Positions 20,701-59,848 of a stretch of DNA of 64,000 nucleotides are shown one piece after another (the stretch's first letter is position 1; the number at the start of each line of letters is the position of its first letter). The DNA comes from Austropuccinia psidii (taxonomy: Eukaryota > Basidiomycota > Pucciniomycetes > Pucciniales > Sphaerophragmiaceae), in assembly GCA_023105745.1 (NCBI GenBank), contig JALGQZ010000005.1:1488001-1552000 (forward strand), read 5' to 3'. The position numbers and the translations under genes are program-made. The notes under the pieces were generated by a model. That model had not been told where the DNA came from. It ran no database searches and saw only the letters and a list, made by a program, of their open reading frames with translations.

Positions 20701-21479
20701 GTCCAAAAAGGGTTTGAATTACCCTTTTAGGGTTTATCCATGGAAAATTGTTAAGAATTGACATGGTTAGAGGAGTCTAAGTTGCTCTTTACCTCCTTGT
20801 CACAACAAAAAAGCAGCTCATTTGCTATTTTCTAATGATTTAATGGAATTTTAACTTGGTAACTAAGTTCCCAAAAGGTTTTAGTACACTAATTGGGCCA
20901 AGATCAGCCATGGACCCAAGCGTTAGAGCTGTTCACGCCTCAGAGGCTTCAGAAGTTGGGTAACATGACTCTTATTGATGTCTTTTGTCCCCCTTGACTA
21001 TTTTCATGTCAAAAATGGAAATTCAGGCTTAAAGACTGATATCCACTATGGGTGTACAAAACGTGGATTTAAGAATACCATGATATTAAGTGCCACAAAC
21101 ATGCATAACGCTATTCTTCATGTATATGTAATATGGAATTTCTCACATTCCCATTATTTTTGCATGAAATTGAGAAAAACAAACATTTTCACAATTCTTT
21201 TATGTGGTATTGAAGTATTTTCCATATTACCACCTCTTATACTTATTTTAAGCTTATTCACTCTATCGACTTACCCTAGGTGAATTTTTGTGTATAATCC
21301 AAATCCTGTCTTAAATCCATGGATTTACTTACTCACAAAACATTTATTCATCTTTTCTGAAATAAAACATTATTAATTTTGAATATATGCATGACTTATG
21401 GGTTATGCATAGTTCAAACTTTATTTTTAATGATATTTGTGGCCTATTTGGGTATGTAAAATATACCTCAAGGCTCACA
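17763..21479 (-). mobile_element. LTR-B copy 2, 5' LTR of the B element (split by LTR-D)
   Basis: Plus strand starts TGTAAGATGTGTCTATG and ends AAGGCTCACA. About 1.9 kb without the nested LTR-D. It closely resembles copy 1, as expected for the two ends of one insertion. Confidence 0.88.
18185..19991 (+). mobile_element. LTR-D copy 3, solo LTR nested in LTR-B
   Basis: Runs from TTTGAGCCTTAGAGG (first bases mutated) to CACACCTTACA. Flanked by the perfect 5-bp duplication ATTTA (18180-18184 and 19992-19996). It sits at a different place in LTR-B from copy 2, so the two were separate events. The 74-codon frame is at 18894-19118 and the palindrome ACACCACATGTGGTGT at 18650-18665. Confidence 0.92.
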
Positions 21480-21484
21480 CAGGC

Positions 21485-24431
21485 TGTGAGCCTGTGAGGG
21501 ATGTATAACATACCCATAAGGCCACAAATAACTTTATACACAGTTAAAATCGTCTTCAACAGACTTTTTAATTGAATTTAAAATAAAAAATAACAAAAAA
21601 GAAGTATATCTTTTTTTTGGATAAACAAAGTTATAAATATTATGTCATTTTTGGTGTCACAGGGGCTCTTCAAAGCAAAGAGGGCCTGGCACTCAGTAAA
21701 CTGGGACTCACTTATGGAGGTCTCAAAGATATGGTAAGAAGGGATTGAATACACTTAAGAGTGTAAGGAATGAATTACTATAATAAAAAATATGAGAAAG
21801 AAGCAACAAAGAAATAAGAGTAAGAAAAAGAAGAGCCAACCACAAACAAGTCCAAGTCCACTGTTTCAACCTGTCAGAATGGAAAGAGAAGGGTTAATAA
21901 GGATATGGCCAACCAACTCATACTGTACAGGTGAAGAGAGAAATGCAAAGACTAAATTAAAATTAAATAATTATAATACCCAAATATAAGGATAAGAATA
22001 ATTATGAAATAATAAATAAACTAAATTGATTAACTGGGGAAAAGTCCCCAGGGGGGAGAAAGAGGGGCTGGTATATGTGAGAAACACCAGCCCTGGTCCA
22101 GAGGAAGAATTTTCATGAGAGGATTGAATTATTGAATTGAGTCTGGCCAATACAGGTCCTGTACAGCTGTAGAGGATCTGTACAAGAGGTGTGGTGAAGT
22201 TTAGTGATCATACAGTTTCATAATGGTGTATCCAAAGTGTATTGGGTGAATCCAACCTCTACAGATGTTGACAGGCTGTGTTGAGGTACCAAGCTGTATG
22301 TGTGTTTCAGCAAGGAAAATTGCTGGAACTGAATTCTGATGCAGATAGTGGATCTGCTGATTTGAGGTTTTTGAGTGGGTGTATTAATGAATACCCTTAC
22401 CCCTGGTGAGTGGTTGTTACATTCGGATTCTACACCAAAAATAACCTAGGGTACATCCATAAGGTGTTATACCCCAAAACACTTATTTCTTATGTTATTA
22501 GAAGATTTATGAATCTCACAGTACTAATGTAACTTTTTTAACATTTTTTTTAAATTGTTAACTTTAAGCTTAAATAAGCTTAAATTTAAAGTTGCAAAAG
22601 GTTTATGCAAACTTACCAAAATTTTAGTTAAAATTGAGGTGTTGTGTATATTCACTGAATTGGCTAAGAATTTGCCATGCAGAATAAAAATCCTGCGTGA
22701 GCTCAATTTAAAAGGGTTTAAGGCCATAGTATGGCTTTAAATAAATAAAAGGACAAAATCCACGCAAAAAGGTGGGACAAAGGAAAAAGACCAAATAGAG
22801 CTGGGGTACCCAACTTTTTGGATCTGCAAGGATTCAATTAAGGTTGTCCGCCTGTATTGAAGTATTTTCAACCTTATTTAAGCTCTAAGATTCGACTTTG
22901 ATCCAACATTAAAGTTTAAACTTGTTTTATCCCAAATTAGACAGGAATTTCAAGCTGCCAGAGGGTAAATCCCAATATGCAGGCTTGAATTCAAGGTTTT
23001 AAGAACTCTCAAAGCTTAATTAAGCTTAAAAAGCTTAAATAAGCTTAAAACGTTAAGGTTACAAGCATTAAAACCTTATCAAAACTTAAGGTTTAGTGTG
23101 TATTGCTATTTTACGTGGAAAAATAGCAATAACTTCAAAAATTCATTAAAAATCTAATTCTCAATGGATTTGCTTGAAAATTTCACACAGCTTAAAATTA
23201 AATATTATATACATATAAATCAAACTTTAAGTATATTTTATAAATAAATTTCCTGGGTAATTAGCCTGGAAATTTACTCTTTTAATTAAAGATCAAAGAA
23301 AATTATAATTTCTTTAAAAATTAATTAAAATATGAGTTTAAGAGATTTCTGCTTGAAACTCTATTTTGAAGTTGTTCATGTGATGAACTTGAATATAAAT
23401 AAGTTTATTTATAGTAAAAACTTAAAATAATTAGTTTAAATGAAGATTAAAGCTACATGGAGTTAAGAATAACCTTGTTAACTTTAAATTGGAATTAAAA
23501 TTAAGTTACCTTAAGTTAAGAGCTTTAGTTTTAAGCATGGCTTTTCAGTTTTGACCTGAGCACGCCCTCTATATCCATTATGAATCATGAGAGCTGCTCT
23601 GAAGACATAAAAAGAGTCTTTTCATCACTGTTTTTGTCCATCAATTTTATTATCAATCCAATCATATTAGAAATTTAAACAGGTAAAGTTTTATTAAATA
23701 TAAAATCTTATTATTAAAGCAATTCTTAAGCTATTTTATTCTTTATTAATTGAAATTAAAGAATTGGAATCATAGAATTTAGATTATTGTTGTAATCACC
23801 AATAATATATTTTATCATATAAAATTAAATCAGCTTAAATATCTGTTAAAATCCACAAATTCCTCTTAAAAACTCTTCAATCTTAATTTTTATTATAAAA
23901 AGTTGTTTTATCCTTAAAATTATTGATTTTTGGCATTTGTTTAACTTATAATTATTATTTAATATAATAACTGTTGTTGTTTGACTTTTTGTATTAAATA
24001 AATATTATAAGTAAGTTTTCTCTAAAGCTCTATATTTTTTTTATCTAGTATTAGTTTTTTGTATATAGAATTTTTATTCTATAAGAATTACTTCTGCACA
24101 GTGTGTGTTTAATTCTCTTATAAATAATATTTATATTATTTATCAGTGGTTAATATTCATATTTTCCACGTGTAACTGTCTCATTAAGAGCTTTACACTT
24201 CTTATTGTTATAACTGTCAGTGACTTTAACAATAATAGAATAATTATTATTTTATATTATTATATTCTTTTTATAATAATAATTAAAGTTATTTTCTTAT
24301 AATTATTGTTTAATAATCATATTTAAATTTGTGGTTATAATATTTTGTTATATTATATATTTCTACTGAGGACAGTCATAGTACTCTTGATTTTGCTACT
24401 ATTATCAAGAGTTTCATAGACAAACCTTACA
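21485..24431. mobile_element. LTR-like element E, interrupted by a family-A solo LTR
   Basis: Begins TGTGAGCCTGTGAGG and ends AAACCTTACA, LTR-type ends. It lies directly after the right CAGGC of the B element and is followed by a third CAGGC (24432-24436). Removing the nested LTR leaves about 2.2 kb of AT-rich DNA with no coding sequence that I recognise. Its first 40 bp recur at 28567-28607. It may be a solo LTR of a family related to B, since its start resembles the minus-strand start of LTR-B. Confidence 0.65.
21655..22421 (-). mobile_element. Solo LTR of the gypsy family A, nested in E
   Basis: Plus strand TGTCACAGGGGCTCTTC to GGTTGTTACA, 767 bp, near-identical over long stretches to the LTR at 41311-42073. 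The flanks TTTGG and TTCGG form a target duplication with one mismatch. No internal sequence is attached. Several promoter-like polypurine and TGTACAGG words are present but nothing specific can be assigned. Confidence 0.85.
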
Positions 24432-28607: not shown

Positions 28608-29062
28608 TGTAAGATGTGTTTATAAAATGGTTGATAATATTACTATTATTCAACAGTAATATTACTGTTCTTATGAAATATAATAATAAGAATCATTATA
28701 GCCACAGTTAAATAATCAATAAATTAGCTATTTATTTTACCTGTGATACAGTACTAGTGAGTATAACAGTAAGCAGTAATTGTCTACAAGGATCAATTAC
28801 AAGAAGTATTTAATAATAAAACTAATTTTAATATACAATTATCTTTTGAAAGAATAATTATAAATATAATTCTTGAAGAAAACTAATACTAGAGAAAAAT
28901 TTAAGAATTAATTAGAACCACTCACTAATACTTCAATTTAACCTTAAAAATAATTGGTGGAGATATTTAATGGATAAAGTGTGGATTTAGAGGCAAAAAA
29001 ATGGTTTATAGGAGTATTACAACAAATTATAGTTTATTTCTATGAGCTCACATATTTCTTGG
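28608..29062 (-). mobile_element. LTR-B copy 5, truncated
   Basis: Starts TGTAAGATGTGTTTATA and follows LTR-B for about 450 bp to a stretch near 29050 that corresponds to TTTCTATGATTTCACG in copy 3. The remaining 1.45 kb of the LTR is absent. The break point is where the Tet/JBP block begins. Confidence 0.75.
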
Positions 29063-29089
29063 GATCCTGCACAGGCTAAAGAAAATTTC

Positions 29090-29310
29090 AGCATTGTGGG
29101 GAAGCTTCACAAGCGTAAGAATTGGCGTGTGAATCGTCGAAAGCCTGTAAAGGCGTAAGGATTGGCGTGTAAACTTTCGGGAGCCTGCACAGGCATAAGG
29201 ATTGGCGTGTGTAGCGATGGCCCCCCGCATAGGCGTAAGGAACTTTTAGCATTGTCAGAACCTGCACAAGCATGAGGATTCGCGTGTGAAGCATTGGCAT
29301 CCTGGACAAT
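29090..29310. repeat. Subterminal degenerate minisatellite
   Basis: Roughly four imperfect units of about 50 bp built on GGCGTAAGGATTGGCGTGT and GCCTGCACAGGC. The word GCGTAAGGAT is shared with the 34.2-34.8 kb array. Open frames here (for example 29414-29088 minus) are a by-product of the repeats. Confidence 0.7.
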
Positions 29311-29330
29311 AGCAACAAACCAGGACCGAT

Positions 29331-29352
29331 GTACGATGGCATGCCACCGTAC
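29331..29352. promoter_or_regulatory. 22-bp near-palindrome, copy 1
   Basis: GTACGATGGC followed by ATGCCACCGTAC: 20 of 22 positions are self-complementary. It lies 127 bp beyond the oxygenase stop codon. A closely related near-palindrome is at 31260-31281 and a degenerate one at 34109-34130. Confidence 0.6.
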
Positions 29353-29478
29353 ATAATCCACTTCACCCCTTTTTCATGTGAGACACCCCATCTCCCGCAC
29401 TCGAATCCATCCAATCCTGGTGTATATTGTCCTCTGCCTTACCTCACCATTACTTACCCAACCCACTTGCAAATCTCC

Positions 29479-30823
29479 TCATTCTTTGAATCGGCATGAG
29501 ATTGTATTACCATCCCTGATTTGATAGCCCGCTCTCTCGCCAATCTCATAATAGCCATTGCTTTTTTGCCGCATTGTTTTTGCTAACCTGCTTGAGCATT
29601 GTGCGGACATACCCACTAGTGTCGTGCTTTCGTTGTCCTGTGCTGGATCAGTATAATGAACAAATGTACTACTGGCCCACACTACCTGAATGAGCCCATG
29701 ACATGCGGATAGATCAATCCAAAAATGCTCATTTGGGAAAATCAATTTTCCCCCTGTACACCGCTTTGACGCATCTCTTTGAATTTGGCCGGTCCGCTTA
29801 TCAGCTTGAAACCACCATCCCGAAGCATACAGCGATGCATCCTTATCAACATGAGGTGCGTTTTTGAATCCATTCATGGTGAAAGTGAGTGCGGAAGCGA
29901 ACTCGAATGCACCCTGATTTGCCGGAATATCGCCTTCATACTTGACTTGATCAAAAGACGGAACCCCCAATGAGTTGTAGCAATTTTGAATCTTCTGAAA
30001 TAAATTATCCCCAACATATCGTAAGGATTGACCTAGAATGCGACCCACCGAGCTAAGATTGGCACCTCGGTCCCGCCATTCATCTTTTGCATTTTCAATT
30101 TTGCCAGCACTACCATACAGACCAAATTGTTCATTCTTCGTGGTGCATTTGCGCCACCCAATCGCGAACATAAATCCCTCCAGTAATGCTCCATTTGTTG
30201 CAATAGGGTCAGTGAACCTCTTTTCGCGAAATAAGAATTGTGATAATTCATCCCATTGATTGACCTCGACTTCACTCATTGTTGTGAATGGTCGGAATTC
30301 AACAAGGGCAATGAGTAATCCGGTTGAAGAGAAAATTGCCACACGGCCAAAGTGAATGCGTTTGATCTGATTGACATCCACCACCCTCCGAATTTCACTT
30401 GGGGTGATATTTGCTGATACTGGCATTGATATTTGTGCTGTTGGGCGAGAGGAGGAAAAAAACCTATTCATTCGGGTCGTTTTGCGCTCATTTGTCTTTT
30501 GGGATCTGCTACTATTCCCGAGTGGTTGCGGGATCACTATGTGTTGAAGCACACAAGATATCAGATACTGCCAAGGAGCTTTCTTCGGCACACATCCTTT
30601 GACTTCCCTGTTGGAGCCCACATGACATTGGCACAATCTGAACCGACTAAAGCCCATGTTCTTCAGTGGGGCCCAATGAGGGTGCCACATAAATGTGGAA
30701 GCATATATATATATCTATATATATACACTGAGATTAAGCGAGTAACTCACACTTTCCTTCCTCAGCCCGACGCTTTCTCGCGAGTTCCCTTTTACGCTCT
30801 TTTCCTTTTTTCGTGAATGGCAT
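29479..30823 (-). CDS. Tet/JBP-like 2OG-Fe(II) dioxygenase
   Basis: Predicted two-exon gene. Exon 1 (30823-30753) starts MPFTKKGKERKRELARKRR, a strongly basic N-terminus, and ends at a GTGTGAGT donor. Exon 2 starts near 30506 (several AG acceptors within 10 bp) and runs to the stop at 29479, giving about 365 residues. The C-terminal half has the Fe(II)-binding HxD in NAPHVDKDASLYASGWWF and a distal His in SSTFVHYTDPA, with GGKLIFPNEHFWIDL between, the arrangement of the double-stranded beta-helix oxygenases of the Tet/JBP type expanded in basidiomycetes. Members oxidise 5-methylcytosine or thymine bases in DNA using 2-oxoglutarate; activity here is inferred. No DNA-binding domain is seen apart from the basic start. 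The frame is intact, and the gene follows the partner gene on the same strand. Confidence 0.78.
30705..30727. repeat. AT microsatellite in the oxygenase intron
   Basis: An imperfect (AT)n run, ATATATATATATCTATATATATA, falls within the predicted intron 1 of the oxygenase gene. Confidence 0.7.
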
Positions 30824-31389
30824 GCTTTCAGCAGAAAATGAAATGAAACCGAATGATTACTGATTTCTTAATATCACCTAAATTGGATTGCGATGGATGA
30901 ATCTTTTTTAATTGCGGCTAAAAAGAAAGCTCACGCCTGACCTTGGCAAATTCACGATCTCAAATACCTGAACCTGAAAATTGCAGTGGATAGTGCATTA
31001 TTCAATTTTACACATTGATGTTCCCATGCAATCACTTTCCAATCCAGCAATTTGGAATATTGCAAGCACACGCAAATGCAATATGCATCCTGCTGCAGAT
31101 CCCTAGTTATCCCACTCCTCTTGAAAGACACAGGAACCTTTTGCCTATTATGGGCTGGCGTGAAGTGATACACGCGACCTCCCGCAATGCCCCCGCGTGT
31201 GCTACTCGCGGGCACAACGCCTGACTCAGCTTGCGTCTTGTCGGAGTCTTCGCAATGATGTACGGAGGCATGCCGCCGTACAATTACTATTGGTACTCAG
31301 ACTGTGGCATCCGGGCAGTAGTAGGATAGGAAGTCATGATTATTAAATTTTGCAAAATTAAATTACAATCTATCTAGTACAAAGCTAAT
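30824..31389. other. Intergenic region between partner gene and oxygenase
   Basis: About 565 bp holding the presumed oxygenase promoter and the partner-gene 3' end. It contains the second near-palindrome (31260-31281). An 87-codon minus frame (31215-30952) lacks recognisable features. The words GCCCCCGCGTGTGC and GCGACCTCCCGC make this the most GC-rich part of the block. Confidence 0.5.
31260..31281. promoter_or_regulatory. 22-bp near-palindrome, copy 2
   Basis: GTACGGAGGC followed by ATGCCGCCGTAC: 20 of 22 positions are self-complementary. It lies between the two genes, 437 bp upstream of the oxygenase start codon and 109 bp beyond the partner-gene stop. Confidence 0.65.
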
Positions 31390-33631
31390 CTAAAACGGGT
31401 CAATCCTGGTTGTGAGTTTAGCTGACCTGGGTACCGTCAAGGTGACCTCATCACTTGAACCAAGCCCGCGATTTGCCACCCAGGCATCACCAAAGTCTAA
31501 TACTAAGCATCGTGCAAAATCAAATCTAAGAGGTACAGTGGGGTTAAAAGACTCTGATGAGAAGAAACTTTTATTCAGTAAATTACATATACACTTATTA
31601 GTACGTAGCCACACTGGCTCCACTAGATTTTTACCCTCTGAAAGTTTTGCGGAAATGTCAATTAGTGCTAAAGCCCCTTTAACTGAGCTTGTTCTCCAGT
31701 CATCTGAGCATACCATCAAACCACGAACCCCCGCCGCACAGAATGCCGCTAATATACCATAGCAAATTCGATTGATTCCAAGATTCTTGTGACACGCCAA
31801 AAGATCTTTGATGGCCTCATTTTTTTTTGAGTTTGTGAGTTTGCCTTTGATGCCATTAACTTCGACCTTTGTATGTGCACGTACCATGTTGTATGCAATC
31901 ATCAAATGGATAACTGTATCCATTAGATCCTCCAGGTTCTTGTGCGGCTTTGTGGATATCTCATTGTCAGCCCCGCCACCTTCAATGCTGAGTTGGGTTG
32001 CACGTTGCTTCGATTTACTCAAGCAGGAGGCAAGGTATTCAACTGCTCCCCGTTCGAGTCCAAGAGGATCGGTTGAATTTGATGTTGGTGCAACATATGG
32101 TTTGGGTGCAATCACATCGTATGAGACTAAACTAATGGATTCAAACATAACATTTGCCCAAAAATGTTTAACTGGATTGGCGGGGTAAAGAAGGCTCTGA
32201 ACCATTTTGAAGAAGGAGTGTTCAGATTTTGCGAGATTATCTGGAGGTTTAGCTGATTCCTTCATCAATTTGAGATTCCAAATGTTGTGATCAAAAAACG
32301 CTTCTGTTTCGGTTGGCTTAAAAAAATCTAACCCTGTATATTGCAATTTATATCACCAGTCAACAGCCAATAATCAAGTATCATGCACAAAGATAAAAAA
32401 AAACTCACCTGCCATCTCAAGGTCCTGCAGCCAAGCCGACATTTTAAGATCTCGGTTACTGATCACCTTAATACCAACGGGCAGGAATGTATGAGCATCC
32501 TTTGTTGGTAAATTGTCCCATCTATTTTTGTAAATCCTATTGATATTATCAAGCCCCCTTTTCCATGATTGTTGAGTAATATTGGAATGATAATTCAAAA
32601 CGCCTGCAAACTCTTCCATGCGGGATAAAAATATTCCTTGAAAATTCGCAGCGGATGACACTTCGGGCTCAGCGTCGGGAATTATATCAGTCATATCTCG
32701 TCCCATTGTATCATGTTTAATTGTTTCCCTTTCTTGAAAGGCTTGAATATTCCGAGGAGAGGCAGGAGGGGTTGCATCATGCATTGTTTCATTGGGTATC
32801 GGGGGACTTTCAGTATGTGGAGCTTCATCATGGATTGTTTCATTGAGTATTGGGGGGGGTTCAGTATGCGGAGGTTCATTATCAATATGGTCCCCTTCAA
32901 CATTGATAATTTCATGACCTTGATCACGAGAGTCCTTTGCGGCTTCAAAGGTACGGCGTTTTTTGTTTGTTTTTTTGGTCGCATGTATATTTGGTCTTTT
33001 TCCTAATCCTTTGCCTGGAAATCCAATTACGACTCGAGATCCTTCAGGTAGAGATTCTCCCACCTCCACACCTGCCCATATATTGTAAGCAGCTATTTTT
33101 ATCAATTTTGTTTTGAATTAGTAATGGACTTACGGTTCAAATCCATTTTGAGCAGGCTCATGGCTTCAGCAATCTTTTGACGCACATAATCAGGAATTTT
33201 ACTATCATTTTGGATTTTTTCGAGCCTTGGGATTGTTTGAGCAATGTTGGAGACAAATTGTTCCTTGGATATAATTTCCACCTCCCCACTGAAAATTACA
33301 TCATTTTGCCCATCATCTTCTGTCGGTGCACAAGGTTCAACAGTCTTTTCCTTCTCATAACTTTTAAAATTTGGTTTCTGAGAGCTTGGAGGCTGCCCTG
33401 AAATAAAGGCTATGACACAATATCAGGTTTTGAGAGATTTGAAATATTAAAGATGGATGCATACTCACATTCCGGAAGAACTGGTGGATCTTGATTATCT
33501 TCATGTGACTGGCTCTCTACTTCAATGCCTAATTCACGACTACTGGCGATATCAGAGATTTCACTTCCACTCTCTGGGGCTGAAGTTGGTCGTTCATTGA
33601 ATTCTGTTGAATTTCCCGGGGTTCGGGCCAT
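31390..33631 (-). CDS. Unrecognised 677-aa protein, partner of the Tet/JBP-like gene
   Basis: Four exons join in frame with consensus splice sites: 33631-33469, 33397-33134, 33071-32409 and 32333-31390 (donors GTGAGT, GTAAGT, GTGAGT; acceptors TTTCAG, GGGCAG, TACAG). I do not recognise the family. The N-terminal ~145 residues are acidic and Ser-rich. Residues about 160-290 include GFPGKGLGKRPN, a basic KKTNKKRR stretch that could be a nuclear localisation signal, and two imperfect copies of a 16-residue repeat (DNEPPHTEPPPILNET, HDEAPHTESPPIPNET). The C-terminal ~390 residues look globular and mixed helical (FFKPTETEAFFDHNIWNLKL, GINRICYGILAAFCAAGVRG, RCLVLDFGDAWVANRGLG). No transposase DDE pattern or zinc cluster was seen. 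No stop interrupts any exon, which suggests recent function. It lies upstream of the oxygenase on the same strand, with 567 bp between its stop and the oxygenase start. Confidence 0.72.
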
Positions 33632-34108
33632 AGCGGAGGTAGTTTATTAAGCAAATAGATGGTGACGAGTTGATTGCTAACTTGTTTGAAAATTTTTTGA
33701 TAAAAGATCCAAATTCAAGAAAAAAGGTGCAAATGCGATTTGTCGGGAAATTGAAGGAGGCAATGTTTTGCAAATTATTTCATATCATGCAAATGAAATC
33801 ACTTCCCTGTGAGACATTGAATAAAGTTGACTAGTGAGAAACCTACTAAAGTCAACTTTTGAACTATTCAATGCTCATGAGGTAAGGACTAAGCAAAGTG
33901 TTCATTTGATTGATATGAAATAAAATGGTTTTGTCGGCGAAACAGGAGACACAATTCTTGTCTTAAATAGTCCACTTATTAGGTTTTAATTTGTGAGTCT
34001 CATGATTTAAACCCTAGCCACAACATGGTGAATATACTGACCAATATCCCCTTAGGTCCTGTTGGCAGAGAAGGCCACTCAGCATATTTCGGCAATTGCG
34101 TTCATCGT
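33632..34108. other. 5' region of the partner gene
   Basis: Presumed promoter region. Its main feature is the foldback listed at 33761-33940. No further gene was recognised. Confidence 0.5.
33761..33940. repeat. Foldback (large imperfect inverted repeat) upstream of the partner gene
   Basis: Left arm 33775-33797 reads TTATTTCATATCATGC plus AAATGAA; the reverse complement of 33901-33923 is the same apart from two bases. Inner stretches pair too: CATTGAATA..AAGTTGACT at 33815-33832 with AGTCAACTTT..TATTCAATG near 33850-33874. Symmetry centres near 33845. It could fold into a hairpin of about 150-180 nt or be a small MITE. Confidence 0.75.
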
Positions 34109-34130
34109 GTACGCCAACAAGCCACCGTAC
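34109..34130. promoter_or_regulatory. 22-bp near-palindrome, degenerate copy 3
   Basis: GTACGCCAAC followed by AAGCCACCGTAC. Outer GTACG..CCGTAC and the length match copies 1 and 2, but the centre has drifted. It lies just before the 84-bp minisatellite. Confidence 0.45.
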
Positions 34131-34164
34131 TGTACACTATGGATGTAATACGGAAGCGTGAGGA

Positions 34165-34795
34165 GGGTAAGCGTTGTCGGAGGCATGTCGGGAGGGCACT
34201 ACATGAGCGTAAGGATGGTAAGCAGTGTCGGGAGAATGTCGGGAGGGAGGGTAAGCGTTGTCGGAGGCATGTCGGGAGGGCACTACATGAGCGTAAGGAT
34301 GGTAAGCAGTGTCGGGAGAATGTCGGGAGGGAGGGTAACTGTTGTCGGAGGCATGTCGGGAGGGCACTACATGAGCGTAAGGATGGTAAGCAGTGTCGGG
34401 AGAATGTCGGGAGGGAGGGTAACTGTTGTCGGAGGCATGTCGGGAGGGCACTACATGAGCGTAAGGATGGTAAGCAGTGTCGGGAGAATGTCGGGAGGGA
34501 GGGTAACTGTTGTCGGAGGCATGTCGGGAGGGCACTACATGAGCGTAAGGATGGTAAGCAGTGTCGGGAGAATGTCGGGAGGGAGGGTAACTGTTGTCGG
34601 AGGCATGTTGGGAGGGCACTACATGAGCGTAAGGATGGTAAGCTGTGTCGGAGGCATGTCGGGAGGGCACTACACAAGCGTAAGGGTCATCAGTGGTGTC
34701 GGAGGCATGTCGGGAGGGCACTACATGAGCGTAAGGATGGTAAGCGTTGTCGGAGGCATGTCGGGAGGGTACTACACAAGCGTGAGGATGGTAGG
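34165..34795. repeat. Tandem array: 84-bp minisatellite grading into a ~50-bp half unit
   Basis: The marker GTCGGAGGCATG starts at 34176, 34260, 34344, 34428, 34512 and 34596, an exact 84-bp spacing. Each unit joins a ~50-bp part (GTCGGAGGCATGTCGGGAGG, CACTACATGAGCGTAAGGATG) and a 34-bp part (GTGTCGGGAGAATGTCGGG). After about 34.64 kb only the ~50-bp part repeats. Because 84 is divisible by 3, several frames on both strands stay open (for example 34025-34816 plus, 34721-34137 minus). I do not regard these as genes. Confidence 0.93.
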
Positions 34796-34849
34796 GGCGG
34801 GGGTGTGAAAGCGTAAGGAGTGGTGAGGACGGAGAGGGGCGGGCAGTGT

Positions 34850-35155
34850 CGGAGTCTCATCCGGATGGAGGGCGGTGCGGGTGCGTAAGCATGCTAAGCG
34901 TCGGGGAGGCGGAAGCCAATGAGGTGAAATTACACGAACATTGCGCATAGTGTTGAAATGGGTTTGGGCTTTGAGTGACATTCTCATGTGACACATGTGA
35001 CGATTGACGTTGTCTTGACGCTGACGTGACGTGACCCACTAAATCCAGTGACTATAAAGTGACACTAACGCGACTGAAGCAAGATTTTATACTGACCGCG
35101 GTGCGACGTGAAGTCAATCGCCGACGATTGACGCGAGATTCGCCCTGGTGAATGC
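34850..35155. other. Right terminal region of the Tet/JBP block
   Basis: Homologous, in inverted orientation, to 59546-59840. Shared words on the minus strand include ACCGCGGT, TATAAAATCTTGCTTCAG, TTTAGTGGGTCACGTCACG and CACATGTGTCACATGAGAAT. A TATA-like box with the same downstream context occurs in both copies. The outer limit is placed where similarity fades near 35155. Confidence 0.7.
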
Positions 35156-35500
35156 CTTCTGAAATGAATTGCCATAAATGACTACTGAAATGAATTGCCG
35201 TAAATGACTTGAAGTAATGAATGTCTTGAATTATGATGATTGGCATAAAATGAAATGATAATAAAGAAAGAAAATTAAAACATAAAGAAAGAAAGAAACA
35301 TTTGGCCATATCTTGACAAGGTCCAAATGGAGGGTATTGATGTTGTAAGCTTCCTGAACCTGTCCAAAGAATTGAAAAGTGCTCACAAAGTGCCCAAGGT
35401 GATGCTTACAACAACATATGGGTAGAATACCCCCTTAAAGGTGCATGCCAGGAGAGGAACTTACTTTCATAACTTCTTCTCCCCACCAAGCACCATAAAA
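35156..35500. other. Spacer between the Tet block and gypsy Pol
   Basis: Contains a 26-bp tandem duplication (CTGAAATGAATTGCC..TAAATGACT at about 35158-35210), then the region beyond the Pol stop codon. A run of G on the minus strand (TTTAAGGGGGTATTC, about 35426-35440) could be a polypurine tract. No 3' LTR matching the 5' LTR at 41311 was found, so the gypsy is probably truncated here. Confidence 0.45.
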
Positions 35501-38500
35501 TCAAACTCTTGAGGTATTTGGACCAGGCTTGTCTGGATACAATGAGTGGAAATCCTTGACAAGGTCTGGTGAGTTGGTAAGGTTGGAAGCTGGTTCCCAA
35601 GTGGTTCTTTCTGGGTCTTCACTGAATCCTTTCCACTCTACAAGATACCATAAATTACCTCTTTTGAGTTTTGAGTCCAGAACCTGAGCCACTTCCCATT
35701 CTTCTTGCTCTTCCACTAAAACTGGTGGTGGCGGCAATTGATGACGATTTGGGATAGTTGAATGCTTGACTGGTTCTAATAAGGACACATGGAATACAGG
35801 GTGAACTGTCTTCCATTGCTGAGGCAACTTGAGGTGATATGCATGGCTGCCAATCTTTTTAAGAACTTCAAAGGGTCCCAACCATCTTTCTGATAATTTC
35901 TTGGTGGGTCTTGTTGTCTTGATGTTCTTGGAAGCTAGCCATACTTTGTCCCCAGGTTGGAAATCAGGTGGAATTGCCCTATTTCTATCTGCATACTTCT
36001 TGAATCTCCTTATTGCTGACTCTAATTCTTCTTTGACAACTTGCTGTACTGATTGGAGTTTTGTTGATAACTTTCCAGCAGGTGAGTCTTGAGAAATATG
36101 GATTGAGTCAAAGCTGGGATTTCTTCCATAAATGGTGAAAAAAGGTGATTGCTTGGTTGATGAATGTTCTGCATTATTATAGGCAAATTCAGCCAGAGGG
36201 AGCCAGGTGTACCAGTCATCTTGATGGTAGCTGACATACATCCAAAGGTACTGTTCTAGTATCTGATTTACCCTCTCTGTCTGTCCATCTGTTTCAGGGT
36301 GAAAGGCAGTTGAAAGATCTCTTGATATCTTGAGCTGCTGACACAATTGAGTCCAGAATGATGAAACAAATAAGGATCCTCTATCACTGACAATACTGAC
36401 TGGGAGTCCATGCTTGGAAAATACATGACTAATGAATATTTGAGCTAAATCCAGAGCAGTGATTGTGCCATAAGTTGGAATGAAGATTGCCATTTTTGAG
36501 AATCTGTCCACAGCTACTAAAATTGAATCAAAGTTGTTGGACAGTGGCAATTGAGTGATAAAGTCCATTGATAATGAATTCCAAGGACCAGATGGAATTG
36601 AAAGAGGCTTGAGTAATCCAAACTTCTTGTGATGAATGTTCTTGTTTCTTGAACATTGCTGACATGAGGACACATAGTCCTTGATGAATTGATTCATGCC
36701 AGACCAATAAAAATCCCTCTTGATGAGCTTGAGGGTCTGCTCCTGGCCAGGATGGCCAGCCAATGGTGAGTCATGACGCCTTTGAAGAATATTGAGTTGA
36801 AGTTCTTCATTGCTTGGGATTACCACTCTATCTTTGAATAATAATAACTTGGCTTGAGGTTCAAGAGAATAATCTGGAACTGATTCACCTCTTGCTAGTT
36901 TCTTGAGTATTTCTTTATAGTCTTTGTCTTGCCATACTTCTTTTTGAATCTTGTCAACTAAATCTGAGAAAATTTCCACTTTGATTGAGAAGAATCTTGA
37001 CTCTTGAATTCCATCTTGCTTAAGTACTTGATGAAAATTCTGAGGATTCTTGCTGATGAAGTCCACCCCCCTCTCTGGGTACACGTCGTCCCGACGTGAC
37101 AAGGCATCTGGTAAAGTGGCCAGCCTGGCTGGGCGGTAAGTGATAGTGAAATGAAATTCTGAGAGAAATTCAGCCCAATGGGCCTGACGACGAGTAAGAA
37201 CTTTGGAAGACATGAAATACTGCAAGGGAGAGTGGTCTGTCAAGACCTCAAAAGAATTGGAAAGAGAAAGAAGAAATGCTCTCCAGCGCTTGAGAGCCCA
37301 AACTATGCCAAGGAGTTCCTTGTCATAAATTTCATAGTTGAGTTCAGCTGGCAAGAGCTTGCGACTATCAAATGCAATGGGGTGCTTTCCTGAGTCATTC
37401 ACCTGGCTCAGTACGGCGCCCAAAGCATAATCAGAAGCATCAGTCTCTACTATAGTAGGTAGAGAAGGATTAAAGTGACATAAGATAGGAGCAGAGGTGA
37501 AAGCTTCTTTGAGTGCTTGAAACTGACTAAGAGCTTCCTCATTGAAGATGAAAGGAGAATCTTTTTTAAGGAGGGAAGTGAGGGAAGTGATTTTTTTAGA
37601 ATAATTTTTAATGAAACGTCGATAAAAACTGGCAAAGCCAAGGAAAGATTGAAGGGCCTTGATGTTTTTGGGCTTAGGCCAATTGAGGATTTGCTGAACT
37701 TTTGAAGAATCCATCTTCAGGCCATCACTTGAAACAACATAGCCCAAGTATTCCACACTTGAGGCATGGAATACACACTTGGAGGCTTTGGCAAACAGAT
37801 CATTGTCCCTCAGTCTTTGGAGGACAGAGGCCACATGTTTGACATGTTCCTCCTCAGAACTGGAAAAGACCATGATATCATCTAGATAAACCACAACAAA
37901 CACATCCAAAAAATCTGCAAAGATATCATTTACTAGATTTTGGAAAGAAGCAGGAGCATTGGTCAAACCAAATGGCATGACCAAATACTCATAACTGCCA
38001 TATTTGGTTCTAAAGGCAGTTAAGTGCTCATCCCCCTCTTTGATTCTCAGAAGGTTATATGCACCAGGCAAATCTATCTTGGAGAAGATAGTGGAACCGT
38101 TGAATACGGTAAGAAGCTGGTTCATAGGAGGAACAGGGTATCTGTTCTTCCTAGTGACAGCATTGAGTTTGCGGTAGTCAACACACAAACGAAGACCTCC
38201 ATCCTTTTTCTTGACAAAAAGGACAGGTGCTCCTGTTGAAGAGGAGCTTGGTCTAATGAAACCTTTCTCTACATTCTCTGAAATGTAGGCCCGCAGTGTT
38301 TCTGACTCTTGATTTGATAATGAGTAGATAACACCAATTGGAGGTAGAAGACCCTCAAATTCGATATGGTGATCACAGGCGCGGTGTGGAGGAAGTTTCT
38401 CTGCTTTCACCTTGGAGAATACATCCAAATATTGGTGATAAGCAGGAGGAACAACCTTCAACACAGTTTCATTTTCTTCTGGCTCTTCCTCCTCATCCCA

Positions 38501-39220
38501 CTGCTCCTCCAGGGATGCATGAAAAGATAAGGGAGGAAGGTCCATATCCCCTTGGAAGAGATGAAGTGAAGATATGGCAACATCTTCTCCAACATCCTTT
38601 ATCTCTTTGAAGACTTCATCTCTTGATGGAAGTAATGACTGAGAGGGAATTATGGAAGGGATATGGACAGAAGAAGGAATGGAAGGTGTCTTAAGTTCAC
38701 CAGCCAGAGCAACACTGTTGACAGCAGTGGCTAAGTCATTACTAGTAGAAGGAATAATACCACTAGAATCCTTATGATTAGAATCATAGGTGATCAATCC
38801 ATTTTTCCAATCAATAATGGGATTGAAATGGTAAAGGAAATCATAGCCCAATATCAGGTCTTCTCCCTTGGGTGAATCTATGATAAAGAAATCCCATTCA
38901 AAGCTTGGGAAGGAAGGCAAGTCAACTACCCACTTGGTATAATGGGTGATGAACAAGGCAGGGGATTGATTAGAATCCAAAATGAAAAGAGGAATCTTTT
39001 CAGGGAGCTCTGACATAGTCAATGAGTACTTGAGAACAAAATTCTTTGCAATAAAAGAGTTTTTAGCACCAGAATCAATGAGAATACTATAAAAAATATC
39101 AGAGACAGAAGAGAAAATAAGAAATTTTAAAGATTTCTTGACACTAGTATTCAGAGTGCACAATTGTGCTCTTGAAGGAAATAAGTGAGAACCATTGAAC
39201 ACATCATGATCCCCACTCAG
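35501..39220 (-). CDS. Pol polyprotein of Ty3/gypsy chromovirus (intact frame)
   Basis: Open for 1233 codons from MFNGSHLFPS at 39202, but continuous in frame back to 39220, where a -1 shift from gag would enter. Order: retropepsin-like protease (ILIDSGAKNSF, near residue 43), reverse transcriptase (LRLCVDYRKLN, IDLPGAYNLL, MPFGLTNAPASF, catalytic VYLDDIMVF), RNase H (VETDASDYALGAVLS .. LPDALSRR), integrase with the HHCC zinc finger (HDSPLAGHPGQEQ .. CQQCSRNK) and DDE residues in SMDFITQLP, IVSDRGSLF and HPETDGQTERVNQ, and a C-terminal chromodomain (WEVAQVLDSKLKRGNLWYLV..WKGF). All catalytic residues are present. It would act in cytoplasmic particles and the nucleus to copy and integrate the element. 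No stop or frameshift was seen, so it is young. The Met start is probably not used. Confidence 0.95.
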   Translation of the reverse strand: MSGDHDVFNGSHLFPSRAQLCTLNTSVKKSLKFLIFSSVSDIFYSILIDSGAKNSFIAKNFVLKYSLTMSELPEKIPLFILDSNQSPALFITHYTKWVVDLPSFPSFEWDFFIIDSPKGEDLILGYDFLYHFNPIIDWKNGLITYDSNHKDSSGIIPSTSNDLATAVNSVALAGELKTPSIPSSVHIPSIIPSQSLLPSRDEVFKEIKDVGEDVAISSLHLFQGDMDLPPLSFHASLEEQWDEEEEPEENETVLKVVPPAYHQYLDVFSKVKAEKLPPHRACDHHIEFEGLLPPIGVIYSLSNQESETLRAYISENVEKGFIRPSSSSTGAPVLFVKKKDGGLRLCVDYRKLNAVTRKNRYPVPPMNQLLTVFNGSTIFSKIDLPGAYNLLRIKEGDEHLTAFRTKYGSYEYLVMPFGLTNAPASFQNLVNDIFADFLDVFVVVYLDDIMVFSSSEEEHVKHVASVLQRLRDNDLFAKASKCVFHASSVEYLGYVVSSDGLKMDSSKVQQILNWPKPKNIKALQSFLGFASFYRRFIKNYSKKITSLTSLLKKDSPFIFNEEALSQFQALKEAFTSAPILCHFNPSLPTIVETDASDYALGAVLSQVNDSGKHPIAFDSRKLLPAELNYEIYDKELLGIVWALKRWRAFLLSLSNSFEVLTDHSPLQYFMSSKVLTRRQAHWAEFLSEFHFTITYRPARLATLPDALSRRDDVYPERGVDFISKNPQNFHQVLKQDGIQESRFFSIKVEIFSDLVDKIQKEVWQDKDYKEILKKLARGESVPDYSLEPQAKLLLFKDRVVIPSNEELQLNILQRRHDSPLAGHPGQEQTLKLIKRDFYWSGMNQFIKDYVSSCQQCSRNKNIHHKKFGLLKPLSIPSGPWNSLSMDFITQLPLSNNFDSILVAVDRFSKMAIFIPTYGTITALDLAQIFISHVFSKHGLPVSIVSDRGSLFVSSFWTQLCQQLKISRDLSTAFHPETDGQTERVNQILEQYLWMYVSYHQDDWYTWLPLAEFAYNNAEHSSTKQSPFFTIYGRNPSFDSIHISQDSPAGKLSTKLQSVQQVVKEELESAIRRFKKYADRNRAIPPDFQPGDKVWLASKNIKTTRPTKKLSERWLGPFEVLKKIGSHAYHLKLPQQWKTVHPVFHVSLLEPVKHSTIPNRHQLPPPPVLVEEQEEWEVAQVLDSKLKRGNLWYLVEWKGFSEDPERTTWEPASNLTNSPDLVKDFHSLYPDKPGPNTSRV

Positions 39221-40578
39221 GCTTTTCCCTGCTTGCTAGGGAAGCCTCTTGATGATGACCCAGGCTTGTTCTGAGGTCTCTTGAAGCATTTTTCAATTGG
39301 GTGCTTGCCACCACAATAAGTACACAACCCTGCTTGAATCCTCCTCTCCTTTTCAGAACCGATTAATTTATTGTCCTTATTGAGGAGAGCAGCATGGGGT
39401 TTGTCCTTTGAAGATTGAAATTGCTTGCCCTTCTTATTCTTCTTCTGATGAGGCCTCTTTTGAAATGAGTTTTGAGGAGGCCTAGACTGATTGGATCCAC
39501 TGACTTGAGGCTTCTTTTCTTGATTGCCACCCTTTTCCTTTTGCCTCTCATGATATCTTGTGTCTAATTCTAAAGTGACATCCATAAGTTCTTGAAGAGT
39601 ATCAAAAGTTCCAGGGTGAGAAGCCAACTGGTCCAATAATCTTGATGCCAATCCTCTTCTGTACACATGAATATAAGCTCTTTCCCCCCAATCTCCAATT
39701 CTTGACATTCAGCTTCTGAAATCTACTATGTACAAGGAAACATGACCACTTTCCTTCATCCTCAAATTGTCCAACTCCTGTTCAGCTTTCCTGACTTCAT
39801 TGGGGTCACCAAACAGAGTCAATAATTGAGATTCAAACAATGGCCAATTATTGAGGAGGTAGGAAGGGTCTTCATTGGAAATATTTGAGAGGTAAGGTTC
39901 AATCCATTTGCCAGCTCTACCAGTAAGAAAAGAAGTTGAGTACAAAACCTTCTTCCTGTCAGAGAAGAAGTTTGCTGGATCATTATGGAAAATTAATTGA
40001 CAGGATTGGATAAATCCTCTCAACCTATGAGCTTGAGTACCATCAAAAGAATCAGGTGCCTTCATGGATGGAGTCTTGAAAGCAGGGGCTTTGGAATTGT
40101 CCCTGGGGGCAACTGCTTGAGTGAGTTGTCCCATGAATTGAGTCATCTGCTCCATCATCTTGAGGAGACTTGGATCAGTTTGAGAGACAAGAGGTTGACT
40201 AGAAAGGGCTATATTAGAACCCTGAGGAACCTCTGGAGCATTTTCCAAGGCATCTGCCACTTCAGTTTCCCCAGAATCTTCCTCTTCCACAGACTCTTCC
40301 CCCTCTTCATCTTCAACTTCCCCTAATCTTGCTCTTGCACCTTCAGACATGCCAGGGTAGCCACCCAAAAGTCCAGAAAAGGATCTTGATCTTCTAGATT
40401 TTATTCCACCTCTTCTTGAGGGTGCTGCTCCTTCCATTGGTGGTCCTCTCTCCAAGTTTGCACTCAGTTGATGAACTGATGGTGTGGGGTCAAGACGAGC
40501 CCTTGCTGTAGGAGTGAGAACAGCTGGAATTTTCTGGGATCTAGTATTCTTTGCTGGGGGGCTATGCTGGACTGGCAT
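39217..40578 (-). pseudogene. Gag of the minus-strand gypsy, one in-frame stop
   Basis: Starts MPVQHSPPAKNTRSQ at 40578. A disordered acidic N-terminal half (EDEEGEESVEEEDSGE) is followed by the capsid-like region (TPSMKAPDSFDGTQAHRLRG, RKVLYSTSFLTGRAGKWIEP, FGDPNEVRKAEQELD) and a basic C-terminus with a zinc knuckle CTYCGGKHPIEKC (CX2CX3HX4C). The frame is interrupted by TGA at 39711-39709, where the plus-strand copy has TTA (DFRSLVSRIGDW). The second part, 39708-39217, continues in the same frame. Total length is about 453 codons, the same as the intact Gag at 62203. A single stop with everything else intact suggests very recent loss, a sequencing error, or read-through. Confidence 0.88.
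39223..39229 (-). promoter_or_regulatory. Candidate -1 ribosomal frameshift heptamer (gag-pol)
   Basis: Minus strand G GGA AAA in the gag frame, followed by GCC TGA. Pol is open in exactly the -1 frame from here. The same heptamer precedes the gag stop in the copies at 5288-5294 and 63528-63534. Confidence 0.65.
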
Positions 40579-41310
40579 TATGAAAAGAATTAAAATAACT
40601 TGATGGTATTAAGAAGAATAATCAGGCTTGGCCAAATCAATCACAATAAAATCTTGATGAATCTTGAGGAATCAATTCAAATCTTGAGGAATCAAATTCA
40701 ATCAACAGTCAAATAAATTCAATCAATCAACAATCAATTCAAATCAAATATCAATAATCTTGAGGAAATCAATAATCAATCAATATTCAATCAATAATCA
40801 ATCAATAAGTGTCTTCAATATGAAATCAAGTCTTGAGGAATCAATCAATCAGTCCAAAATCTTCAGAAATCAATTCAATATCTTGATGAGTCAAATCAAA
40901 TCAATAATCAAATCAATTCTTGAGGATCAATCAATATCTTGAGAATTCAAAAGTCAATCAATAATCCAAATGAAATCCTGAATCAATAACCCAATCAACC
41001 AATGAATCCCAATGAATAATCCAATCCAATAACCAATCAATTACTCCTGAATAAGACCTGAATAAAAACACAGAAAAAATTTGATTGATAAAAATAAAAT
41101 GAAGTGATGAAATGGTCAGCAATGATTAAGAAGGAAAAAGAATCAATTTTCATAAGAATGAAATGAATGAGATGAAAATTGATGAGAGAGAAAAATTCAT
41201 AGAAAATCATAAAAAATCATAAAATCATGAAAAGGTCATAATTGATGAATGAGAGGAAATGAATATAAATGAATGAAAAGAAAGAATCAAATATGAGTTA
41301 ATTAATTTAA
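40579..41310 (-). other. Gypsy leader, CAATCAAT-rich
   Basis: About 730 bp between LTR and gag made largely of AATCAATCAAT and TCTTGAGGA words. The 60-codon frame within (40760-40942 plus) is low-complexity and not a gene. Next to the LTR the minus strand reads TTAAATTAATTAACTCATA, without the usual TGG of a tRNA primer-binding site. Confidence 0.65.
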
Positions 41311-42073
41311 TGTCACAGGGGCTCTTCGAAGTGAAGAGGGCCTGGCACTCAGTAAACTGGGACTCACTTATGGAGGGCTCAAAGATAAGATAAAAAAGAG
41401 ATACACTTAAGAGTGTTAAAGATAAATTGCTAAAGAATAAATATAAGAAAAAGCAGCAACAAAAGATAAGAGTAAAAGAATAGAAGAGCCAACCACAAAC
41501 AAGTCCAAGTCCACTGTTTCAACCTGTCAGAATGGAAAGAGAAGGGTTAATAAGGATATGGCCACCCAACTCATACTGTACAGGCGAAGAAAGAAAAGGC
41601 AAAGACTAACTTAAAATTAAATAATTATAATACCCAAAATAAGGATAAGAATAATTATAAAATAATAAATAAACTAAATTAATTAACTGGGGAAAAGTCC
41701 CCAGGGGGGAGAAAGAGGGGCTGGTATATGTGAGAATCACCAGCCCTGATCCAGAGGAAGAATTTTCATGAGAATAATTGATGATTGAATTGAGTCTGGC
41801 CAATACAGGTCCTGTACAGCTGTACAGAACCTGTACAAGAGGTGTGGTGTATTTGAGTGATCATACAGTTCCATACTGGTGTATTGAAACTGTATTGGGT
41901 GAATCCAACCTGTACAGGTATTGACAGGCTGTATTGATGTACCAAGCTGTATGCATGTTTCAGAATGAAGATTGCTGAAACTGACTGCTGATGCAGATAC
42001 TGGATTTGCTGATTTGAGGTGTTTGAGTGGGTGTATGAATGAATACCCTTACCCCTGATGGATGGTTGTTACA
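41311..42073 (-). mobile_element. 5' LTR of the minus-strand gypsy (family A)
   Basis: Plus strand TGTCACAGGGGCTCTTC to GGTTGTTACA, 763 bp, the same ends as the solo LTR at 21655-22421. An alternative outer end is 42144 (GGTTGTGACA), which would give a perfect 7-bp TGTCACA/TGTGACA terminal repeat as in the LTR at 59849-61425. The solo LTR supports 42073. Confidence 0.8.
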
Positions 42074-56700: not shown

Positions 56701-57173
56701 CATCTTGTATATCTCAAGAGATATTAGCTAAAACCCATGAATATATGCATTGACCAAAAAGGTGCATATATTCTGCTTAATTCCTTAAGTATTGACTTTA
56801 GAGAATAGCTTTATAATTGTTTTATGTGTGGTGTTTTATTTAGAATCCAATGGTAGAACTTTTTTCACATGTTGTTACATTGTGGTCTGAGTTAAATAAG
56901 GTTTTATACCTTTTTTAAGTCATTATTACTTGTTCTTCAGTAATTATTGACTTTTCAGATATGCCATAAAAATGAAATATGTGTATTTTACCATGAGGAA
57001 TCGAATGGCTTAATTTATTTCACTTGTTTACTCATTAGATTTTGAGTTAATCCAGATTCTTTACTTATCTATGGTATTTTTACTAGTCTTTGAGATAATT
57101 ATTATAAGTTTAACTATTACAGAAATTTTGTTGTGACCTCTTTGGATATGTGGTCATATCTCAAAGGCTCACA
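53753..57173 (-). mobile_element. LTR-C copy 2, solo LTR (split by LTR-D)
   Basis: TGTAAGGTTTGACTATG to CTCAAAGGCTCACA, about 1.9 kb without the LTR-D insertion. Perfect 5-bp duplication AATAT at 53748-53752 and 57174-57178. It interrupts the transposase remnant. Confidence 0.95.
54515..56033 (-). mobile_element. LTR-D copy 4, solo LTR nested in LTR-C, internally deleted
   Basis: TGTAACGTGTGGTTATG to CCTCTAAGGCGCACA, flanked by a perfect 5-bp duplication GTGAT (54510-54514, 56034-56038). LTR-C copy 1 shows the empty site as GGTTTAGTAATGATTACATC (about 49524-49543). It is about 300 bp shorter than the other copies; the gap falls just after the 16-bp palindrome at 55842-55857. The 74-codon frame is at 55612-55388. 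Confidence 0.93.
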
Positions 57174-59545: not shown

Positions 59546-59848
59546 AGTTTACTTGCACCAGGGAAAATGTTGCATCAATTGCCAGCAATTGACTTCATGT
59601 CGTACCGCGGTCCATATAAAATCCTGCTTCAGTTGGGTTAATGTCACATTATAGTCACTAGACTTAGTGGGTCACGTCACGTTTGCGTCAATACAACATC
59701 AATTGTCACATGTGTCACATGAGAATGTCACTCAAAGCTCAAACCCATTTAAACGCTATTCACAATGTTTGGGTAATTATGCCTCATGGTGCAAGGCAGC
59801 AGGTTGGCATGCTCATATTTGTGCATGAGAAGACTTGCGCCCCACCAC
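59546..59848. mobile_element. Truncated inverted copy of the Tet-block terminal region
   Basis: About 290 bp homologous to 35155-34850. It keeps the TATA-like box (CATATAAAATCC at 59613-59624) and GGGTCACGTCACG. Many CpG sites of the 35-kb copy appear here as TG or CA. It is cut at 59849 by the gypsy LTR. Confidence 0.7.

What the first reader, a model, noticed from the sequence alone, without database searches (positions are those of the whole stretch)
29063..35155. Two-gene block pairing a Tet/JBP-like oxygenase with an unrecognised 677-aa protein
Seen: two spliced, undamaged minus-strand genes in a CpG-containing island, surrounded by decayed retroelements, with repeats near both ends and one terminal region repeated elsewhere in the window. 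Known: Tet/JBP oxygenases are expanded in basidiomycetes and have been reported next to KDZ-type DNA transposons. Inference: this may be a different mobile unit that carries its own base-modification enzyme, with the partner acting as mobility protein or chromatin factor. No KDZ transposase or its zinc clusters are visible here.
Basis: partly seen in the sequence, partly recalled or inferred. Interest (0 to 1): 0.88.

Follow-up and report, generated by a model that had tools for sequence, protein, structure and literature searches.

The report
Rust mobile element with demethylase gene
A piece of mobile DNA in a myrtle-rust genome carries a gene for a DNA-demethylation-type enzyme, a companion gene of unknown type and repeated motifs at both ends, which suggests a parasite that brings its own tools to escape the host's DNA silencing; elements carrying such an enzyme are already known in rusts, the companion and its repeats are the new part.

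Summary
The window is Austropuccinia psidii. A sharp CpG island (29060-35150, observed/expected 0.77, elsewhere 0.20) holds two open minus-strand genes: a 677-aa partner (4 exons) and a TET/JBP-type oxygenase (domain intact; 5' end unsettled, simplest model 330 aa). Both recur widely: 144 partner and 192 oxygenase protein hits, the 120 listed of each all A. psidii MF-1. They sit together in about ten MF-1 loci (7 neighbour pairs, 3 fused models); the array precedes the partner in four models. The 5' end begins CACCAGGG and recurs at 59556 with different flanks. CCTTACGC occurs 11 times in the window (0.19 expected), only in the two arrays flanking the genes, on one strand. Other copies show CpG-deamination damage at arginine codons; this copy keeps arginine at 29 of 30 such sites. 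So this is one copy of a mobile TET+ element, probably truncated at its 3' side. TET+ DNA transposons in rusts, A. psidii included, were published in 2025: the kind is known. I found no description of the partner family or flanking arrays in the texts searched. Best mechanism, inferred: the partner binds the arrays and directs the oxygenase to keep the element unmethylated. No transposase, TSD or 3' end was found; genome searches did not complete.

The parts
34919..35150 (-). 5' terminal region, begins CACCAGGGC at 35150; contains TATAAAA and repeated CGTCA
   Evidence: Same start and 85% identity at 59556-59787; CpG O/E 1.46 against 0.09 just outside
34150..34918 (-). 5' tandem array (51/33/84-bp units) with CCTTACGC motif
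   Evidence: 9 of the window's 11 CCTTACGC; translated array heads 4 of 121 partner protein models
34108..34130 (.). degenerate copy of the palindromic 23-mer
   Evidence: family D7 (78%); not recovered by the pattern at 3 mismatches
31390..33631 (-). partner gene, 677 aa, exons 33631-33469, 33397-33134, 33071-32409, 32333-31390
   Evidence: of 121 paralog models 27 share the start and 18 the stop, one (P0009) both
31259..31281 (.). palindrome GTACGGAGGCATGCCGCCGTAC, just 3' of the partner stop
   Evidence: 2 matches in the window, mean 0.00 in 100 shuffles
29479..30471 (-). TET/JBP-like oxygenase, 330 aa one-exon model (frame open up to 30714; 5' end unsettled)
   Evidence: Pfam PF20515 E 2.9e-47; 192 protein hits; model support and doubts
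29330..29352 (.). second palindrome, just 3' of the oxygenase stop
29060..29329 (-). 3' array of about 40-bp units sharing the CCTTACGC motif, same strand as the 5' array
   Evidence: 2 of 11 CCTTACGC, 3 of 14 CTTACGC
59556..59787 (+). second copy of the 5' terminal region in different flanking DNA, CpG-decayed (6 of 19 CpG kept, 11 now TG or CA)
28608..29059 (+). flank: first ~450 nt of a 1.9-kb repeat, cut off exactly at the block edge
35501..39235 (-). flank: open Gypsy polyprotein ORF, CpG O/E 0.15

Best explanation
The block is one well-preserved copy of a high-copy mobile DNA element of A. psidii that carries a TET/JBP oxygenase (of Kojima's PU type, inferred from the host, not tested) and a 677-aa partner. 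Its 5' end starts with CAC, as in fungal EnSpm elements; its 3' end is probably truncated at 29060, and a transposase, if the full element has one, is missing here or supplied by other copies. Shown: pairing, copy number, arrays, 5' terminus, CpG island, CpG decay in other copies. Inferred mechanism: the host methylates CpG in mobile DNA, which silences it and mutates CpG to TpG/CpA; the partner binds the CpG-containing arrays on either side of the genes and guides the oxygenase, which oxidises 5mC there, so the element stays transcribable for a time. This works like a plant VANC/VANDAL or Spm TnpA anti-silencing system but with its own oxidising enzyme. I put the mobile TET+ element at about 0.85 and the partner-guided part at about 0.35; the figure below is for the whole.
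For: Oxygenase domain E 2.9e-47. Partner: 16 of 16 hits and the 120 listed of 144 are A. psidii MF-1; oxygenase: the 120 listed of 192. Three further models fuse partner then oxygenase in the window's order. Array precedes the partner in 4 of 121 models. CACCAGGG start with flanks that do not align in two places. CCTTACGC: 11 in the window, 0.19 expected, none of 100 shuffles above 3; 9 in the 5' array, 2 in the 3' array, 0 in the genes, 0 on the other strand; the 9 owe their number to tandem repetition, so the 2 in the 3' array are the telling ones. CpG island edges coincide with the block edges. Arg codons CGN kept in 24% (partner) and 40% (oxygenase) of paralog cells, AGR Arg 74% and 79%, non-Arg 82% and 85%; replacements are mainly Q, H, C, W. 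At sites chosen from the paralogs' own R/QHCW mixture the window has R at 17 of 17 (16 CGN, one AGA) and 12 of 13; paralog medians 0.25 and 0.40. A. psidii TEs are CpG-methylated and CpG-depleted (PMC12774611, PMC8063080, passages).
Against: No transposase, no TSD and no 3' terminus were found; inverted similarity of the two ends is at chance, and no exact CACCAGGG lies at the far end; the 9-mer CACCAGGGC by itself is as common as chance gives (6 with one mismatch, 4.84 expected), so the terminus rests on the 232-bp homology of only two copies. The partner has no robust domain hit, its models are poor (pLDDT 35 and 50) and no fold matched, so DNA binding is untested. 111 of 118 listed partner tags had no listed oxygenase neighbour on the same contig within 3 tags; short contigs and cut-off lists may explain part of this. 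The family's other copies are themselves heavily CpG-decayed, so protection is at best local or temporary; youth alone could explain this copy. At least one oxygenase paralog keeps more of the sites than the window (P0017, 13 of 13). The 5' and 3' arrays are only modestly alike (direct: 1 of 200 shuffles as good; inverted: 5 of 200). Kojima notes that such enzymes may make other modified bases rather than remove 5mC, and speculates that the AG type acts without target specificity.
Confidence: 0.42

Rival explanations
1. The block is a 3'-truncated or internally deleted EnSpm-type TET+ transposon; the partner is an accessory transposition protein (like TnpA of Spm, binding subterminal repeats to assemble the ends), the oxygenase is a passenger that works without guidance, and the transposase gene is lost from this copy.
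For: CAC start agrees with the 5'-CAC..GTG-3' ends Kojima gives for rust EnSpm; 3' edge abuts a truncated repeat; repeats at both ends resemble subterminal repeats; Kojima reports an extra third protein in TET+ PHISTA elements.
Against: No transposase remnant recognised in the block; only one end defined; the shared motif has the same orientation at both ends, unlike typical inverted subterminal repeats; TIR not found.
Confidence: 0.3
2. The partner is itself the transposase, of an unrecognised or very diverged type.
For: It is the only other gene recognised in a unit present in many copies; it has no other identity.
Against: No C(2)C..H(3-4)H pattern of the CMCT transposases in the partner or in any of 121 paralogs (the motif as given); the weak model is mostly helical with no RNase-H-like sheet that I can see (low confidence); no fold match.
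Confidence: 0.13
3. A dispersed host gene pair or segmental duplicates, not a mobile element; the CpG island is an ordinary gene island.
For: The region at 43-45 kb, by eye a host gene, has comparable CpG O/E, 0.65-0.78.
Against: Over a hundred protein models, noncoding array carried along in 4 of 121, abrupt shared terminus with flanks that do not align, TE-like CpG decay of the copies.
Confidence: 0.05
4. The CpG retention needs no protection: this copy simply inserted recently from a master copy. (Not exclusive with the others; it denies only the protection step.)
For: Younger TEs in A. psidii keep more CpG (PMC12774611, PMC8063080; passages); the other listed copies are mostly decayed.
Against: The adjoining Gypsy ORF is also fully open yet has O/E 0.15, so a working TE of this genome need not be CpG-rich; this does not exclude youth.
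Confidence: 0.45

Closest known systems
TET+ DNA transposons of rusts (Kojima 2025, PMC12730594), above all EnSpm and PHISTA
   Same: TET/JBP gene inside a mobile DNA unit in Pucciniales; A. psidii named; CAC start as in the EnSpm families; extra protein known in PHISTA
   Different: No transposase seen; 'tandem repeat', 'subterminal' and 'accessory' do not occur in the main text; bases before CAC are TT and TG, not TA, against PHISTA/ESTA; supplement not read, so the partner could be listed there
KDZ (Kyakuja-Dileera-Zisupton) transposons with TET/JBP
   Same: Mobile unit with TET/JBP gene in basidiomycetes
   Different: No KDZ transposase found in the block proteins scanned
VANDAL/VANC anti-silencing elements of Arabidopsis (PMC5735166, PMC10398659; abstracts read)
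   Same: Works alike, by inference: element protein plus noncoding tandem repeats as its possible targets
   Different: Those abstracts mention no oxygenase; no sequence relation tested
Maize Spm TnpA (recalled)
   Same: CAC-type element whose accessory protein binds repeated subterminal motifs and is linked to demethylation
   Different: The shared motif here is direct, not inverted; no homology shown

Membership tests
TET/JBP (Tet-like 2OG-Fe(II)) oxygenase | domain match and HxD...H metal residues | tested here: met
   PF20515 E 2.9e-47; HVD present; among paralogs H 115 of at least 118, D 112 of at least 117, downstream H 100 of at least 106 (one search shows the three commonest letters only; roles of residues recalled)
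TET+ DNA transposon | TET gene within a multi-copy mobile unit | tested here: met
   shared 5' terminus
TET+ DNA transposon | transposase in the same element | tested here: not met
   none recognised in the block; block probably truncated
EnSpm (rust type) | 5'-CAC start | tested here: met
EnSpm (rust type) | 3' GTG end, TIR and 3-bp TSD | tested here: inconclusive
   no matching 3' end; 3' side probably lost
PHISTA / ESTA | TA target-site duplication | tested here: not met
   bases before CAC are TT at 35150 and TG at 59556, if CAC is the true end
KDZ | KDZ transposase | tested here: not met
   no Pfam match in the block proteins scanned
CMCT transposase (for the partner) | C(2)C and H(3-4)H motifs | tested here: not met
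   0 of 121 paralogs; no C..C in the window protein
VANC-like anti-silencing protein | sequence-specific binding of element repeats and loss of methylation | not testable with these tools
   only candidate target arrays seen

The most novel reading that the evidence does not exclude
A self-contained, targeted DNA-demethylation cassette: a new protein family (the partner) recognises CpG-containing repeat arrays on both sides of the element and recruits the element's own TET oxygenase, giving a fungal counterpart of plant VANC anti-silencing that carries its own catalytic arm, and whose success can be read in the CpG content of each copy.
Probability: 0.3. Interest if true: 0.82.

Novelty: new variant of a known kind. 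Interest (0 to 1): 0.52.

Why it matters
Why fungal transposons keep capturing TET enzymes is open: the published view is that they probably undo methylation or CpG mutation of their own element, without experimental proof, and for the rust type the sections read give no way for the enzyme to find its element (for the mushroom type Kojima speculates on untargeted action). This unit offers a concrete candidate, a co-carried partner and co-carried repeat arrays, and a natural read-out: copies differ in CpG decay, so protection can be tested in public methylation data.

Tried and rejected
Structure of the partner: two AlphaFold jobs with 12 and 66 sequences gave pLDDT 35 and 50; Foldseek on the second found 13 matches at E 10 or better, none at 0.001. 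The weak Pfam CDC24 hit (E 0.0033 in the window protein, under its cut-off; 15 of 66 paralogs, best 1.5e-5) was not taken as an identity. A profile search of the PDB found nothing, nor did a PDB search with the oxygenase. Viral contigs: 48 pattern matches, none a confirmed relative of the partner (the tool may leave out near records). TIR search between the ends: at chance. The idea that the block simply interrupts the 1.9-kb repeat was rejected because no match to the rest of that repeat was found beyond the block up to 46.8 kb. The idea that the 232-bp region is an internal divergent promoter was set aside because both copies start at the same CAC and CpG content jumps there in both. In one search a different, degenerate form of the 3' array motif was weak (1 match, 39 of 500 shuffles as good); the exact motif, with its own control, is the one used. 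Dropped before the arginine count: alignments over 97% identical.
Full report
Origin. The two proteins match Austropuccinia psidii MF-1 entries at up to 96% (oxygenase) and 92% (partner, a 212-aa stretch), so the window is A. psidii (myrtle rust) or something very near it.

Anatomy. On the minus strand the block reads: CACCAGGGC... 232-bp end (35150-34919) with a TATA-like box; tandem array (34918-34150); a degenerate palindrome (34130-34108); partner gene (33631-31390; four exons, 677 aa); a palindrome (31281-31259); spacer; oxygenase gene (30471-29479); a palindrome (29352-29330); a short array (to 29060). Of 121 partner models 27 share the start and 18 the stop, one both. The oxygenase matches Pfam PF20515 (E 2.9e-47). 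The simplest model is one exon, 330 aa: 4 of 119 MF-1 oxygenase entries have that length and 9 of 119 start at the same methionine. Against it, 8 of 119 start further upstream and 11 of 119 hold a short stretch before the domain that the window's frame lacks. The partner has no identity: three sub-threshold Pfam hits, no PDB relative by profile, poor models, no fold match.

Edges. CpG content is the clearest edge marker: 234 CpG in 6091 bases, O/E 0.77, against 0.20 in the rest of the window (29060-35500 left out) and 0.09 in the 350 bases beyond 35150. Other CpG-rich places are 43-45 kb (0.65-0.78) and 60-61 kb (0.59). At 35150 the end sequence starts at the same base as a second copy at 59556 whose flank does not align. 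That copy keeps 6 of the 19 CpG of the block copy, with 11 turned into TG or CA. The 9-mer CACCAGGGC alone is no rarer or commoner than chance (6 with one mismatch, 4.84 expected). At the other side the block stops where a 1.9-kb repeat, present elsewhere in the window, is cut off after about 450 nt. No inverted repeat of the 5' end lies there, so I read the 3' side as truncated and leave the element's class open; the CAC start fits EnSpm, and the bases before it (TT, TG) do not fit TA-duplicating PHISTA or ESTA.

Copies. Partner: 16 hits, all A. psidii MF-1; with a 12-sequence profile 144 hits at E 0.1 or better, 120 listed, those all A. psidii MF-1. Oxygenase: 192 hits, 120 listed, those all A. 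psidii MF-1; the unlisted 24 and 72 were not seen, so other species are not excluded. Hits are protein models, not loci: three partner pairs and one oxygenase pair lie within six tags of each other. MF-1 contigs are short, so linkage is under-counted. Still, 9 of 118 unfused partner tags lie within three tags of a listed oxygenase (random mean 0.62, maximum 5 in 5000 draws over an assumed range of tags); comparing contig lengths keeps 7 and drops 2; five of the seven are direct neighbours. Three more models (P0005, P0007, P0013) run from partner into oxygenase in the order seen here. In 4 of 121 partner models (P0002, P0014, P0016, P0208) the predicted protein begins in the translated array, so the array belongs to the unit. 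111 of 118 partner tags showed no listed same-contig neighbour.

Repeats. CCTTACGC occurs 11 times in the window where 0.19 is expected (largest of 100 shuffles 3): 9 in the 5' array, 2 in the 3' array, none in the genes, none on the plus strand. CTTACGC occurs 14 times on the minus strand, 10 and 3 of them in the arrays. Whole-array similarity is modest: direct, 1 of 200 shuffles as good; inverted, 5 of 200. The palindrome GTACGGNGGCATGCCNCCGTAC occurs twice within three mismatches (mean 0.00 in 100 shuffles), each time 100-130 bases after a stop codon. These are candidate binding or processing sites; nothing shows what they bind.

Decay. Taking the window genes as reference (alignments over 97% identical left out), paralogs keep arginine in 216 of 908 cells where the codon is CGN (partner) and 566 of 1424 (oxygenase), but in 294 of 396 and 442 of 556 where it is AGA/AGG; other residues are kept in 82% and 85%. 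The replacements are mainly Q, H, C and W, as CpG deamination on either strand would give. Not every site fits: a few AGR arginines vary (partner 321 and 326, oxygenase 315), and two CGN arginines (partner 14, oxygenase 329) show no R among the commonest paralog letters, so they may be new in the window. To avoid using the window copy as yardstick I chose sites by the paralogs' own mixture of R with Q/H/C/W: the window has R at 17 of 17 sites (16 CGN, one AGA) and 12 of 13; medians of paralogs with at least 6 such sites are 0.25 (78 proteins) and 0.40 (121 proteins); the best paralogs reach 0.86 (7 sites) and 1.0 (P0017, 13 of 13, one more than the window). So this copy is among the least damaged of those seen, and the family as a whole is attacked by CpG mutation. 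That fits published CpG methylation and deamination of TEs in this species (PMC12774611 and PMC8063080, passages). It also means the oxygenase does not give lasting or family-wide immunity. Youth of this copy explains its state as well as protection does; the open but CpG-poor Gypsy ORF next door (O/E 0.15) only shows that a working element here need not be CpG-rich.

What is known. Kojima 2025 (PMC12730594; abstract, rust sections, phylogeny, discussion and figure legends read; word searches; supplement not read) describes TET genes in seven transposon lineages of rusts, A. psidii included, and an undescribed third protein in PHISTA elements. It speculates that the enzymes counter methylation or CpG hypermutation, allows for other base modifications, and for the mushroom type proposes untargeted action. 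In the held library the only paper with Austropuccinia, dioxygenase and transposon together is that one. Plant VANC proteins bind tandem repeats of their element and cause methylation loss (PMC5735166, PMC10398659; abstracts).

Verdict. A real, high-copy, paired mobile unit with its own oxygenase: a new variant within a known kind. The guided anti-silencing reading is the most attractive and is untested; the accessory-transposition reading is close behind. The whole-genome comparison that would settle the ends, the transposase and the methylation state could not be run because the genome search did not complete.

Noticed in passing
57120-59467 (-): Decayed minus-strand ORF pieces next to the second terminal copy; by eye (recalled) they resemble an EnSpm/Plavaka-type transposase, but no piece scanned has a Pfam hit at its cut-off. 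CpG O/E 0.14 for 57745-59467.
   Followed up: partly
43000-45200: Second CpG-rich island (O/E 0.65-0.78) with pieces that by eye look like a short-chain dehydrogenase gene (Pfam adh_short only at E 0.15).
   Followed up: no
46831-48752, 51236-53159, 7602-9485, 17763-21480, 28608-29059: A 1.9-kb repeat present in several copies in both orientations, one interrupted by another repeat at about 18180-19995.
   Followed up: no
60109-60307: Tandem array of GCGCA-rich units upstream of an open frame at 62089-63537 that looks gag-like by eye.
   Followed up: no
35501-39235 (-): Open 1244-aa Gypsy polyprotein with chromodomain, RT, RNase H and integrase, CpG-poor although open.
   Followed up: partly
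30955-31296 (-): 114-aa open frame in the spacer between the genes; by eye an MF-1 model (P0072) reads through a similar sequence into the oxygenase, so the oxygenase may have an upstream exon.
   Followed up: no
21635-22421 and 41289-42073: Two LTR-like stretches 89% identical in the same orientation 19.6 kb apart, which could be the two LTRs of the Gypsy element around the block, with much later insertion between them.
   Followed up: no
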